Of a stretch of DNA of 64,000 bases, positions 47,140 through 52,405 are shown in pieces. How positions within the stretch are numbered: the first letter of the stretch is position 1; every line of letters begins with the position of its first letter. This DNA is from Rubripirellula reticaptiva (GTDB lineage Bacteria > Planctomycetota > Planctomycetia > Pirellulales > Pirellulaceae): positions 124,001 to 188,000 of the forward strand of contig NZ_SJPX01000002.1 of NCBI RefSeq assembly GCF_007860175.1. Reading direction: 5' to 3'. The position numbers and the translations under genes are program-made. Under the pieces are notes generated by a model. That model had not been told where the DNA came from and did not search any database. It saw only the letters and a program-made list of their open reading frames with translations.

Positions 47140-47937
47140 TTACTTCGCAGACTTCATTCGCTCGGAGAGTAGATCCGCGTACACTCGACCGACGTCGCCC
47201 ATGTAGTGACGCGGGGCGTCGGCCGAAGCAGCCTTCATCCGCTCTATCGCTTCGTCCCTATCGCCCAGCGCATCGGCGTATAGGCCCAAGTACAACTCGC
47301 CGTAGAACTTCGCGTCTTCCGCGGCCCCCGACTCGGGCGCTCGCTTGACGACCCAGTTGATCCGATCCCGAACACTTTTGGTGTTGCCGCTGGACAGCAT
47401 TTCCAAAACTTCGTTCATCGGTTCACGGCCATCCCCAGGCGCTGGCAACAACATCTGCCTCGCCTTTTCAGGCGAATCCGCCTTGGCGACACAGACGAAA
47501 TGCCAGGCCGCATTTTCGACATCGTGTGGATTGACAGCGCGGTGCTTGGCGAACTGCTCAGCCGCCGCTTGGTACTTTCCGACAAAATACAGAGCGATCC
47601 CACGCTGCCACAGATAGGGCATTTGCGTCGGCACTTTTTCGATAAACCGATCAAACTGCACCACAGCCTGGTCAGGCTTGCCGGATCGCAAGTAAACGTC
47701 GCCAGCCTCGACCATCGCTTGAACGTTGTCGCCGTAATCAGCGACCATCGCGTCCGCGGCCTTGATTGCCGCATCACGATCACCACGCCGAAGCGATTCA
47801 CTCGCATCTCTTCGCAGCGATGAAAGCGTTGCCGATTGCATCGCTGCAGGCTCTGTCGCAAGCAACCGTCTACTTTCTTGGTAAACCAGATTTATCGAGA
47901 GGAGAAAAAGTCCGGCTAGCAACAAAGATCGCATCAT
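47140..47937 (-). CDS. Exported TPR protein, last gene of the terpene-cyclase operon
   Basis: This 265-residue protein opens with a hydrophobic signal or anchor segment (MMRSLLLAGLFLLSINLVY). Helical tetratricopeptide-like repeats follow, such as 'AMVEAGDVYLRSGKPDQAVVQFDRFIE' and 'YLWQRGIALYFVGKYQAAAEQF', in the manner of NlpI-type proteins. There is no lipobox cysteine after the hydrophobic stretch, so a membrane anchor or cleaved signal is more likely than a lipoprotein. The frame is open to a GTG at 47946, which overlaps the upstream stop as GTGA. The ATG at 47937 is preferred because AGGTGA lies five bases before it. Partner unknown; the context suggests a scaffold or periplasmic role linked to the operon's product. 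Confidence 0.8.
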   Translation of the reverse strand: MMRSLLLAGLFLLSINLVYQESRRLLATEPAAMQSATLSSLRRDASESLRRGDRDAAIKAADAMVADYGDNVQAMVEAGDVYLRSGKPDQAVVQFDRFIEKVPTQMPYLWQRGIALYFVGKYQAAAEQFAKHRAVNPHDVENAAWHFVCVAKADSPEKARQMLLPAPGDGREPMNEVLEMLSSGNTKSVRDRINWVVKRAPESGAAEDAKFYGELYLGLYADALGDRDEAIERMKAASADAPRHYMGDVGRVYADLLSERMKSAK

Positions 47938-47942
47938 CAAGA

Positions 47943-47948
47943 TCACCT
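47943..47948 (-). promoter_or_regulatory. Shine-Dalgarno AGGTGA overlapping the upstream stop codon
   Basis: The minus-strand AGGTGA contains the TGA of the chorismate-lyase-like gene and stands five bases from the ATG at 47937. This arrangement favours translational coupling of the TPR gene to the gene before it and decides the start in favour of 47937. Confidence 0.6.
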
Positions 47949-48509
47949 GACCGACGTGTTTGCAACAATCTCGAGAAGTTCGATTGCGGGGACCGAATCA
48001 CAGTAAATCAGCGCTGTTCGGCCGTACAGAACATCACCAACTTGGCAGTGCATCAACTGGGCGAGAGATGGTCCTGCGTGAACTTTCCAGAGCCCACACA
48101 ACTGAACTTCACGCAGCACATTGTGCTCGATCAAGACTCGTCCCAAGGGCGTTTTCTGGCTCTCGATCCGCCGCCAAACTTCGTCCGCAAGCGCGGTCGT
48201 GTCCAATCGAACAATCCCGAACTGAACGACTTCGCCGGACTCGGTTCCCGTCAATGTGATCTCGCGGTTGTACCAATTTCCGTTCCGCGAAAAGCGATGC
48301 ACTTGAACATCGACAGGTTGGTTCCAATGCGATTCGACCGTCACCGTCATGTGGGCGTTATGGTCAAGCAATTTATCGTACGGTGATGGCGCAGAGTCGA
48401 TTTTTTCGAACACACCAAGATCCGCATGATCGGCCGGTGGGCCGTAAAACTGATCGATCAGTTCGCGTATTTCGACGCGGGCATCACCCGACGATGTAGC
48501 TCGATTCAT
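47943..48509 (-). CDS. Chorismate lyase-like (UbiC/DUF98-type) protein
   Basis: About 188 residues. The order of motifs fits the chorismate pyruvate-lyase fold: 'KLLDHNAHMTVTVE' (the 'LL.d..sMT..lE' start), 'NWYNREITLTG' (the 'YWLREILL' strand of E. coli UbiC), 'KTPLGRVLIEHNVLRE' (the very typical 'KTPLGRYLF'), then 'GRTALIYCDSVPAIELLEI' near the C-terminus where UbiC-type enzymes carry a functional Glu. Known members convert chorismate to 4-hydroxybenzoate plus pyruvate, so this could supply an aromatic ring; substrate specificity is inferred. There is no signal peptide. The frame also permits a TTG at 48524; the ATG at 48509 is preferred. It lies 31 bp after the prenyl synthase gene and is followed at once by the TPR gene. 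Confidence 0.75.
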   Translation of the reverse strand: MNRATSSGDARVEIRELIDQFYGPPADHADLGVFEKIDSAPSPYDKLLDHNAHMTVTVESHWNQPVDVQVHRFSRNGNWYNREITLTGTESGEVVQFGIVRLDTTALADEVWRRIESQKTPLGRVLIEHNVLREVQLCGLWKVHAGPSLAQLMHCQVGDVLYGRTALIYCDSVPAIELLEIVANTSVR

Positions 48510-48540
48510 TGCATAGCTCGTCAATTTCAGCAGTTGAATT

Positions 48541-50382: not shown

Positions 50383-50388
50383 TCGTCT

Positions 50389-50393
50389 ACCTC
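50389..50393 (-). promoter_or_regulatory. Shine-Dalgarno GAGGT deciding a TTG start
   Basis: A strong GAGGT lies six bases upstream of the TTG at 50382 (minus strand). As no ATG occurs before the DUF116 domain, this site fixes the start of the fusion protein. Confidence 0.7.
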
Positions 50394-50449
50394 GGTGTCA
50401 CATGGGGTGGGAAGGGACGCACCGACAGCGAACTGTCGCGAGAGTCGAC

Positions 50450-52405
50450 TCAGGGATCTTGGGGTGTGTATGGAGGTGGGTGTTTTCGCAGCACTTCGGA
50501 TCTCAAAGCTTTACCCAATGCCGCCGCCGTGAAAATCAGAGGATAAAGCCGTTCATAGTACCAGAGCTTTGCAAAATAGAACCCGATCGGCCATGGAACT
50601 TGGTGCCGCTTCTGATCGATGCTAGAAAGCAAAAACTGGACTCCGCCGATTATAGCCTGATCCCGCCGCGCATTCCCACCGGCGATCGGTCCATTCCGAG
50701 GCGAACTTGGTAATGTTTGGTTGGCGATCAACGCCGACGCCAAGGCATCCACAGCCAAAGCGGTCTCCTCGACACTGCTAATGACGGCTTTGTCACCATC
50801 CGACCCACGTAGGGTCCAATAAGAGGCAATGGAGTTTCCACCACCCCAACCGCCATCCGAATTCTGGCTTTCCACCAAAAATCGTGTCGCCCGATCAACC
50901 GCAGCCTGCGAAAGGCCAGCTCGCCCCCCAACACTTGTCGCCGCCATCAGAACTTTTGACGTTCCGTAAATCGGATTGTCTTCATCCGGCCGATCTTGGT
51001 TCCCGAACCAGAGGGGCAACCAGGCTCCATCTGCTTGTTGAGATTTCGACAAAAACTTTGCACCGCGTTTGATCGCCGCTTCTGAATTGATCTCTTGTCC
51101 CGTTTTAACGGACAAAGCTCGGACCGCATGACCGGTCAGATCGGTGCTACTACGATCGAATGGTAACTTCCCCCAACCGCGACAGAACGTGGGCCAACCG
51201 CCATTGCGGTTCTGTAGTTTCAGCAACCAGCGCTGCCCTCGCTCGATTGCCAGATCGATCGAGCGAATCGAGTCCAAATTCTTGCATCGCTTTTTGGCAT
51301 GCGCAAGCGCAAGGATCGCGGCTGGCGTATCGTCGCTGTCGGGCACCGCGCCGCTAAGGTCCGTCCATCCCCATCCCCCCGGTTCGGCACCGGTGAAGGG
51401 GTGCCGAGTCAGGTGCTGACAGGACAAATGCCAATCCAGTAACTCGTCGCTGTACCACTTGCTATCGTCCTCGGGATCCGACGCCAACGCATCGATCGCA
51501 AGCGACGTGACCCACGTTGCCAAATTCGTGTCGATCGGCCAACTGCCGTCGTCCAACATCGAATCGGCCAGAAACTTCAACCCGCGTCGGCTGACTTCGT
51601 GATCGCTCCGTCCGGTTACAGCCAAACTCATCACGACGAACGACGTCAACGGAGTCGCTTCTAGATAGCCGCCGCTTTCGGGTTGCATCTTACCCAGCAC
51701 TTTCATTGTCGGATTGACCGCGGCGGCACGGACCATACGCCAAGGCCAAAACGTTCGACGCCCCAAAAAATGCCGCGTCTGCCCGATCGCCACCAGTGCA
51801 GGAATCGCATAGCTGACCACTGGCATTTGCAGAAACCGATACATCGACTGAGGGAACACCGCAGCCTCGAACGGCAACGAGGCAACGTCGTCCCAGTCGA
51901 TCAGCCCAGCGATCGCCATGTTGGTCATGATCGGCACCACAAACGTCTTATCCGTTCCGTAACGACGACGCAGCCCTTCGATGCCGCCACCTTTAAGAAT
52001 GTAGTCGTCTAGCCGATCCCGCGAATGATCATCAAGCGGCTGACACCCAGCCTTTATCGCCAGTTCCGATGCGGCCAGCACCAAATAGCTGGTCGCAATG
52101 TTAGACAAACTGCGATCGGTATCACCGAATCCACCGTCCGCGTTTTGCTGAGTCCTCAGAAAATCCATTCCCCTGGATACCTGTGACACACAAAAGGGCG
52201 AGGAAAATTCCTGACCATGCACGATCGTCGCCGCGATCGCGCTGACCGCGGTTGCCGTACTTAACGCCGACGCTGACAATTGGCCAGTCCAATGCCCATC
52301 GCTGGTTCGCTGATCGAGCAGTTCACCTCGCAGTTGATCCAGCGCCAGTCGAGCCCGCTGTTGCAAATCGCGTCTATTCTCGGCCCCCGGTCTTTCGTCA
52401 CTCAT
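50450..52405 (-). CDS. Class II terpene cyclase, squalene-hopene cyclase-like
   Basis: This 651-residue protein is close to the size of bacterial squalene-hopene cyclases. The catalytic acid motif DxDD is present as DSDDT (about residue 356), the site that protonates the polyene. At least five QW-type repeats are visible: QNADGGFGDT, QPESGGYLEA, QNRNGGWPTF, QQADGAWLPLW and QNSDGGWGGG. The late block 'NPIYGTSKVL' matches the 'YIYGTWAVL' of the family. The alpha-alpha barrel should be a monotopic membrane protein. The sequence departs from canonical hopene synthases in several QW motifs, so the substrate may be squalene or another linear terpene made with the neighbouring prenyl synthase. It leads a four-gene operon and is divergent from the sugar isomerase gene. 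Start ATG has only a weak ribosome-binding site. Confidence 0.87.
   Translation of the reverse strand: MSDERPGAENRRDLQQRARLALDQLRGELLDQRTSDGHWTGQLSASALSTATAVSAIAATIVHGQEFSSPFCVSQVSRGMDFLRTQQNADGGFGDTDRSLSNIATSYLVLAASELAIKAGCQPLDDHSRDRLDDYILKGGGIEGLRRRYGTDKTFVVPIMTNMAIAGLIDWDDVASLPFEAAVFPQSMYRFLQMPVVSYAIPALVAIGQTRHFLGRRTFWPWRMVRAAAVNPTMKVLGKMQPESGGYLEATPLTSFVVMSLAVTGRSDHEVSRRGLKFLADSMLDDGSWPIDTNLATWVTSLAIDALASDPEDDSKWYSDELLDWHLSCQHLTRHPFTGAEPGGWGWTDLSGAVPDSDDTPAAILALAHAKKRCKNLDSIRSIDLAIERGQRWLLKLQNRNGGWPTFCRGWGKLPFDRSSTDLTGHAVRALSVKTGQEINSEAAIKRGAKFLSKSQQADGAWLPLWFGNQDRPDEDNPIYGTSKVLMAATSVGGRAGLSQAAVDRATRFLVESQNSDGGWGGGNSIASYWTLRGSDGDKAVISSVEETALAVDALASALIANQTLPSSPRNGPIAGGNARRDQAIIGGVQFLLSSIDQKRHQVPWPIGFYFAKLWYYERLYPLIFTAAALGKALRSEVLRKHPPPYTPQDP

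What the first reader, a model, noticed from the sequence alone, without database searches (positions are those of the whole stretch)
47140..52405. Candidate undescribed pathway: class II terpene cyclase + DUF116-prenyl synthase + chorismate-lyase-like + TPR operon
Four minus-strand genes follow each other with gaps of 67, 31 and 5 bp. A terpene cyclase with DxDD, a prenyl diphosphate synthase and a protein that could make 4-hydroxybenzoate together suggest a cyclised meroterpenoid or prenylated aromatic lipid, rather than simple hopanoid synthesis (no hpnCDE squalene genes are here). No aromatic prenyltransferase of UbiA type is visible, so either it is elsewhere or the products are used separately.
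Basis: partly seen in the sequence, partly recalled or inferred. Interest (0 to 1): 0.8.

Follow-up and report, generated by a model that had tools for sequence, protein, structure and literature searches.

The report
Planctomycete terpene operon spanning two pathways
A row of bacterial genes that looked like one new pathway is conserved in many planctomycetes, but it appears to join pieces of two separable pathways: one that probably makes a ring-shaped terpene lipid, and one that probably makes compounds from 4-hydroxybenzoate.

Summary
The four minus-strand genes are real. The core order cyclase > DUF116-prenyl synthase > chorismate-lyase-like is conserved: contiguous in 56 of 80 named planctomycete loci, cyclase-synthase adjacent in 73 of 80. 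The TPR gene is local (20 of 80).

Phylum-wide profiles split the operon. Module B (cyclase, DUF116-synthase, radical-SAM enzyme, Fe-S protein, often an H-protein-like carrier and a prenyltransferase-like toroid) forms compact runs without the lyase. Module A (lyase with flavin-halogenase-like protein, CoA-ligase-like proteins, thioesterase, glycosyltransferase) forms clusters without the cyclase. The window holds two B genes and one A gene; a best homologue of each of 12 other probed families lies elsewhere in this genome, mostly scattered.

The lyase has the chorismate-lyase/UTRA fold and near-invariant active-site equivalents. The cyclase is a family of its own: 74 of 294 genomes at 491 bits or more, next hit 130.

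Most likely the cyclase acts on its partner synthase's product rather than squalene, and the lyase makes 4-hydroxybenzoate for an aryl product. One joint meroterpenoid is possible but not favoured. Ten paper searches found no description of this operon.

The parts
50450..52405 (-). class II (DxDD) terpene cyclase of a separate, SHC-related family (module B)
48541..50382 (-). DUF116 (CxxCxxC) domain fused to all-trans polyprenyl diphosphate synthase; DDIED and NDxxD motifs, Ala at -5 of the first motif (module B)
47943..48524 (-). chorismate-lyase/UTRA-fold protein, probable 4-hydroxybenzoate-forming chorismate lyase (module A)
47140..47946 (-). TPR protein; accessory of near relatives, not part of the conserved core
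   Evidence: 20 of 80 loci

Best explanation
The operon joins the two main enzymes of a terpene module to one enzyme of a separate aromatic-acid module. Module B: the DUF116-tethered synthase makes an all-trans polyprenyl diphosphate (inferred C25-C35); the DxDD cyclase protonates and cyclises that chain, as the diphosphate or a derivative, without a squalene step; the ring product is then modified by module B's radical-SAM enzyme with Fe-S and lipoyl-carrier-like partners, whose genes are scattered in this genome but lie together in some distant relatives. Module A: the lyase converts chorismate to 4-hydroxybenzoate, which ligase-like proteins activate and the halogenase-like flavoprotein and partners turn into an aryl compound or ester. 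Shown: gene content, order, predicted folds, motifs, separability of the two modules. Inferred: every substrate, product and step.
For: Module B runs with no lyase in the stretch read: L274 (G115), L275 (G263), L276 (G166), L277 (G082); G263, G166 and G082 have no lyase hit at all. Module A clusters with no cyclase in the stretch read: L236-L240, L242, L243; of these genomes G330, G282 and G279 have no cyclase of this family, while G115, G161, G101 and G195 have one elsewhere. Of 22 genomes (E 1e-19 or better): radical-SAM f4 in 13 of 14 with the cyclase and 0 of 8 without; Fe-S f12 14 of 14 and 0 of 8; DUF116 14 of 14 and 1 of 8. With the lyase, f3, f22, f17 and n11 in 14 of 14 each; without it in 3, 3, 3 and 1 of 8. 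Lyase fold: 2nwi DUF98 E 9.9e-8, chorismate lyase 1g81 E 3.7e-5; R87, P126, G128 in 100 of 100 sequences, L127, R169 and E185 in 99. Cyclase model nearest SHC 2sqc (E 4.5e-20) and drimenyl diphosphate synthase 7xq4 (E 4.3e-16). 11 of 74 cyclase genomes have no PF00494 hit. f3 has WxWxIP in 27 of 31 sequences, the 4 misses being fragments of 80-266 aa. A 2025 review says a planctomycete makes an ester of 4-hydroxybenzoate with a chlorinated fatty acid, genes 'currently unknown' (PMC12078418, passages).
Against: Cyclase and lyase co-occur far more than expected if independent (56 genomes with both, 15 lyase only, 18 cyclase only, 205 neither; relatedness not corrected) and share an operon where other module A genes have moved away, which one joint pathway would also explain. 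DUF116-synthase > lyase pairs persist in G039 and G053, which lack this cyclase, hinting at a synthase-lyase link. Absence of PF00494 is weak: families f52 and f78 (34 genomes with SHC-like hits) have one PF00494 hit between them, at 3.9e-4. UTRA regulators share the lyase fold. An EboC-like UbiA homologue of unknown acceptor exists in this genome.
Confidence: 0.6

Rival explanations
1. One joint pathway: 4-hydroxybenzoate is prenylated with the synthase's chain by a UbiA-type enzyme encoded elsewhere, and the cyclase folds the chain into a meroterpenoid, as MstE does in Scytonema.
For: Operon order conserved; 56 of 294 genomes have both; synthase-lyase pairs without this cyclase in the genome exist; MstE with prenylated dihydroxybenzoate is among the fold matches (6sbe E 2.4e-5); this genome has an EboC/SCO3242-like UbiA homologue of unknown acceptor.
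Against: Each module occurs without the other. No UbiA family was found among the neighbour proteins I scanned with Pfam, though not every neighbour was scanned. The best UbiA of this genome lies beside an MqnC-like gene. MstE chains are about 350 aa against 651 here.
Confidence: 0.17
2. The cyclase is a divergent squalene-hopene cyclase fed by squalene made elsewhere in the genome.
For: Best solved-structure match is SHC; this genome has a pair of adjacent PF00494 genes.
Against: 101 bits against the 431.1-bit hopene-cyclase cut-off; clean score gap from SHC-like proteins, and several genomes carry both; 11 of 74 cyclase genomes lack PF00494, with the caveat given above.
Confidence: 0.15
3. 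Plain conserved synteny: the genes are neighbours by ancestry, with no shared product or regulation.
For: Merged loci also contain ribosomal protein S18 and a HemN/HemW-like gene among the module genes.
Against: Short or overlapping intergenic distances, and module B kept together in distant families of the phylum.
Confidence: 0.08

Closest known systems
Squalene-hopene cyclase (A. acidocaldarius SHC, 2sqc)
   Same: Class II fold over the whole length, DxDD, conserved His in the TAH motif of the profile alignment
   Different: 101 bits against a 431.1 cut-off; clear score gap to SHC-like proteins; paired with its own DUF116-synthase
Drimenyl diphosphate synthase (Streptomyces showdoensis, 7xq4)
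   Same: Class II cyclase of a linear prenyl diphosphate; next best fold match (E 4.3e-16, TMt 0.79)
   Different: About 500 aa and FPP as ligand; the window protein is larger and its substrate unknown
Bacillus C35 terpene route with HepS, YtpB and SqhC (recalled, not tested)
   Same: Prenyl synthase plus an SHC-like cyclase on a non-squalene chain
   Different: As recalled it has no DUF116, radical-SAM or lipoyl-carrier partners; I did not search for a YtpB relative
UbiC / DUF98 chorismate lyases (1g81, 2nwi)
   Same: Fold, and equivalents of the active-site Arg and PLG segment; a conserved C-terminal Glu by pattern
   Different: No Pfam or NCBIfam family reached by the window protein; aligned relatives are 37-76% identical to it; activity untested
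MstE merosterolic acid cyclase (6sbe)
   Same: Class II cyclisation of an aryl-terpene; weak fold match (E 2.4e-5)
   Different: About 350 aa; no UbiA gene in the window

Membership tests
Squalene-hopene cyclase | DxDD catalytic acid | tested here: met
   107 of 108 distinct cyclase ORFs of 500 aa or more
Squalene-hopene cyclase | Passes the curated hopene-cyclase cut-off (TIGR01507) | tested here: not met
   101 vs 431.1 bits
Squalene-hopene cyclase | Squalene synthase present wherever the cyclase is | tested here: inconclusive
   PF00494 missing in 11 of 74 cyclase genomes, but also nearly absent in families f52/f78 that have SHC-like hits
Squalene-hopene cyclase | Turns squalene into hopene | not testable with these tools
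   needs an enzyme assay
Chorismate lyase (UbiC/DUF98) | Chorismate-lyase fold | tested here: met
   AF2 model pLDDT 90.6; 2nwi E 9.9e-8, 1g81 E 3.7e-5; UTRA regulators match too
Chorismate lyase (UbiC/DUF98) | Active-site Arg, PLG segment, C-terminal Glu (roles recalled) | tested here: met
   R87, P126, G128 in 100 and L127, E185 in 99 of 100 sequences; Arg and PLG aligned with UbiC. The Glu lay outside that alignment and is matched by pattern only
Chorismate lyase (UbiC/DUF98) | Curated family model reached | tested here: not met
   0 families for the window protein; PF01947 in 2 of 29 relatives, best E 0.0051
UbiA-dependent prenylated 4-hydroxybenzoate pathway | UbiA-type prenyltransferase beside the operon | tested here: not met
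   none of the genome's three PF01040 hits is in the window; they are MqnP-like beside an MqnC-like gene, heme-O-synthase-like, and EboC/SCO3242-like
Flavin-dependent halogenase (module A partner f3) | WxWxIP motif (recalled hallmark) | tested here: met
   27 of 31 sequences, the 4 misses being fragments of 80-266 aa; but best model CmlS 193.3 vs cut-off 900 bits
All-trans polyprenyl diphosphate synthase | Two aspartate-rich motifs | tested here: met
   DDIxD in 101 of 102 distinct ORFs of 450 aa or more; NDxxD second motif

The most novel reading that the evidence does not exclude
Module B is a new class of polycyclic terpenoid lipid pathway spread across Planctomycetota: a DUF116-fused synthase feeds a squalene-free class II cyclase, and radical-SAM, Fe-S and lipoyl-carrier-like partners then modify the ring system, possibly by sulfur or carbon transfer.
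Probability: 0.35. Interest if true: 0.8.

Novelty: new variant of a known kind. Interest (0 to 1): 0.58.

Why it matters
It gives a testable gene set for an unknown terpenoid in about a quarter of the sampled planctomycete genomes (74 of 294). It also offers a candidate gene set (lyase, halogenase-like protein, ligase-like proteins) for planctomycete 4-hydroxybenzoate compounds; for one of them, alichondrichlorin, a 2025 review says the genes are unknown (PMC12078418, passages). Cyclases of this family could be counted as squalene-hopene cyclases in surveys, which would overstate hopanoid potential (inference).

Tried and rejected
The four genes as one complete pathway: set aside. TPR as core: rejected (20 of 80 loci). 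Absence of squalene synthase as proof: tried and downgraded, because families f52/f78, 34 genomes with SHC-like hits, have a single weak PF00494 hit. In the 60 nearest genomes 49 have the cyclase at E 1e-90 or better (my count), and 11 of these lack PF00494; one of the 11, G008, is only 77% complete. UbiA presence as support for a meroterpenoid: uninformative, PF01040 is in 60 of 60 relatives and 14 of 14 controls. Literature: ten searches and passages of ten papers showed no description of this operon; no whole paper was read; two relevant papers were not held; most subscription papers are not in that library.

Limits. Gene order in my scripts uses mechanical ORFs, so starts are uncertain and genes can be missed. 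The 22 profiled genomes were picked by me after seeing cyclase and lyase hits. In them I counted matches at E 1e-19 or better; weaker ones, such as f4 in G330 at 4.5e-11, were treated as other family members and dropped. The n11 query piece came from G330, one of the 22. f14, f7, f8, f11 and f13 were in the query but are not counted, because weak or paralogous hits blur them. 'SHC-like' rests on a partial profile match and ORF length; those proteins were not classified further. Genomes are related, so counts are not independent events.
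Full report
WHAT IS THERE. The window lies in a 7.85-Mb genome (G000:C2:124001-188000). The best named matches to its cyclase are planctomycetes, mostly Rhodopirellula, Rubripirellula and Stieleria. Domains: a cyclase with SQHop_cyclase C and N domains; DUF116 fused to a polyprenyl synthase; a 193-aa protein with no family; a TPR protein.

CONSERVATION. In 60 close genomes the lyase-like protein is found in 57. By mechanical ORFs the gaps run from -206 to 284 bp in 73 loci and from -53 to 185 bp in 56. 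Some misses are short contigs (for example L117, L144). TPR is in 20 of 80.

THE CYCLASE IS ITS OWN FAMILY. Across 294 phylum genomes the cyclase profile gives 74 genomes at 491 bits or more. The next hit, 130 bits, is a half-length cyclase-like ORF in G042; SHC-like proteins follow from 118 bits down. Several genomes hold both kinds. The AF2 model (pLDDT 90.4) matches SHC 2sqc (E 4.5e-20), drimenyl diphosphate synthase 7xq4 (E 4.3e-16), lanosterol synthase and diterpene cyclases, and more weakly MstE (6sbe, E 2.4e-5). DxDD is present in 107 of 108 distinct cyclase ORFs of 500 aa or more.

THE SYNTHASE. DDIxD in 101 of 102 distinct ORFs of 450 aa or more; second motif NDxxD. The residue five before the first motif is Ala in all but one of the 25 commonest forms printed, which by recalled knowledge of chain-length control points to chains longer than C20; this is inference. 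DUF116 carries CxxCxxC in 96 of 99 ORFs of 560 aa or more; one paper's passage calls DUF116 proteins predicted metal-binding (PMC5898192).

THE LYASE-LIKE PROTEIN. AF2 model pLDDT 90.6. Foldseek: AF1396/DUF98 2nwi E 9.9e-8, then UTRA-type effector domains, and chorismate lyase 1g81 at E 3.7e-5. Profile alignment to E. coli UbiC (probability 58, E 9.9e-5) pairs R87 with the Arg of LREILL, and PLG with PLG. In 100 distinct sequences R87, P126 and G128 are invariant and L127, R169 and E185 are in 99. Such conservation favours an enzyme over a ligand sensor (inference). The Glu lay outside the aligned stretch and is matched by pattern only.

TWO MODULES. In distant planctomycetes the lyase lies in a compact cluster with no cyclase or synthase in the stretch read: f22 (weak AMP-binding), f17 (aldehyde-dehydrogenase-like), f13 (Fe-ADH), f6 (PQQ propeller), f5 (HemN/HemW-like radical SAM), lyase, f3 (halogenase/geranylgeranyl-reductase-like flavoprotein), f8 (GT4), f11 (4HBT thioesterase), n10 (no Pfam hit), n11 (PaaK-like ligase), f9/f15 (ABC ATPase, FtsX) in L236-L240, L242 and L243, with local variation. 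Of those genomes G330, G282 and G279 have no cyclase of this family; G115, G161, G101 and G195 have one elsewhere, in G195 about 16 kb away. Lyase loci L232, L233 and L241 show little or none of the cluster. Conversely the cyclase lies in compact runs without the lyase: G115 f21-f14-f12-f4-cyclase-synthase-f7; G263 f12-f4-synthase-f7-cyclase; similar in G082 and G166. f4 is a radical SAM (CxxxCxxC in 28 of 28), f12 a Fe-S protein (C..C..C...C in 21 of 21), f14 an H-protein relative with the lipoyl-type E[ST]xKA in 12 of 14, f7 a prenyltransferase-like toroid, f21 a CobW GTPase. In the 22 genomes: f4 13 of 14 vs 0 of 8, f12 14 of 14 vs 0 of 8, DUF116 14 of 14 vs 1 of 8 (G039) by cyclase; f3, f22, f17 and n11 14 of 14 each vs 3, 3, 3 and 1 of 8 by lyase. 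G115, G230 and G137 have both modules in separate places; in G222 the genes are scattered. Loci such as L147, L177, L182, L192, L228, L230 and L231 show parts of the two merged.

THIS GENOME. A best homologue of each of the 12 probed families exists, scattered apart from f22 with f17 and f5 with f14; f6 lies beside f5. The f3 homologue has WxWxIP (L267), a recalled hallmark of flavin halogenases; its best model is CmlS at 193.3 bits against a cut-off of 900, and it also nears the geranylgeranyl-reductase cut-off (136.3 vs 158.8), so halogenation is unproven.

SQUALENE. PF00494 is missing from 11 of 74 cyclase-bearing phylum genomes. Against relying on this: families f52 and f78, 34 genomes with SHC-like hits, have one PF00494 hit, at 3.9e-4. 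This genome itself has two adjacent PF00494 genes. The operon link to a dedicated synthase is the better argument for a non-squalene substrate.

LINK BETWEEN MODULES. Both 56 genomes, lyase alone 15 (two of them, G066 and G075, partial or weak hits), cyclase alone 18, neither 205. DUF116-synthase > lyase pairs survive in G039 and G053, which lack this cyclase. These facts keep a joint product open. Against it stand separability and the lack of a clear prenyltransferase: the three UbiA-superfamily genes of this genome are MqnP-like beside an MqnC-like gene, heme-O-synthase-like just below its cut-off (206.8 vs 210.3), and EboC/SCO3242-like, below both cut-offs, acceptor unknown. The last could in principle serve.

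LITERATURE. A 2025 review (passages; PMC12078418) lists a 4-hydroxybenzoate ester with a chlorinated fatty acid (alichondrichlorin), genes unknown, and 3,5-dibromo-p-anisic acid, pathway or candidate genes postulated, among planctomycete products. Both would fit a lyase plus halogenase, but no genome of either producer was tested. Strain papers count 'terpene' clusters in the passages I saw, and one puts polyprenyl synthetases and terpene cyclases under carotenoid or hopanoid pathways (PMC8303584). The searches behind the statement that I found no description are listed under Tried and rejected.

VERDICT. Real and conserved; better read as the meeting point of two separable pathways than as one four-gene pathway.

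Noticed in passing
window 2275-21960 and 22131-40016 (-): Two giant neighbouring ORFs of 6561 and 5961 aa fill more than half of the window.
   Followed up: no
phylum genomes of families f52 and f78: 34 genomes have SHC-like hits with only one weak PF00494 hit between them, so how these cells would make squalene is unclear from this search.
   Followed up: no
L085:8029-8940 (-), L095:6980-7915 (+): Half-length cyclase-like ORFs (303-311 aa) overlap the start of the lyase ORF in G042 and G059.
   Followed up: no
L089, L098, L097: DUF116-synthases next to the lyase where the cyclase is absent (G039, G043) or elsewhere (G051) have altered DUF116 cysteine patterns but keep the first synthase motif.
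   Followed up: partly
L075, L086, L099, L276: A class-V aminotransferase (cysteine-desulfurase-like) and a CobW GTPase recur beside the cyclase module, hinting at sulfur or metal chemistry.
   Followed up: no
G000:C2:341773-342540 (L263): UbiA-type prenyltransferase beside an MqnC/CofH-like radical SAM gene, as expected for futalosine-route menaquinone synthesis.
   Followed up: partly
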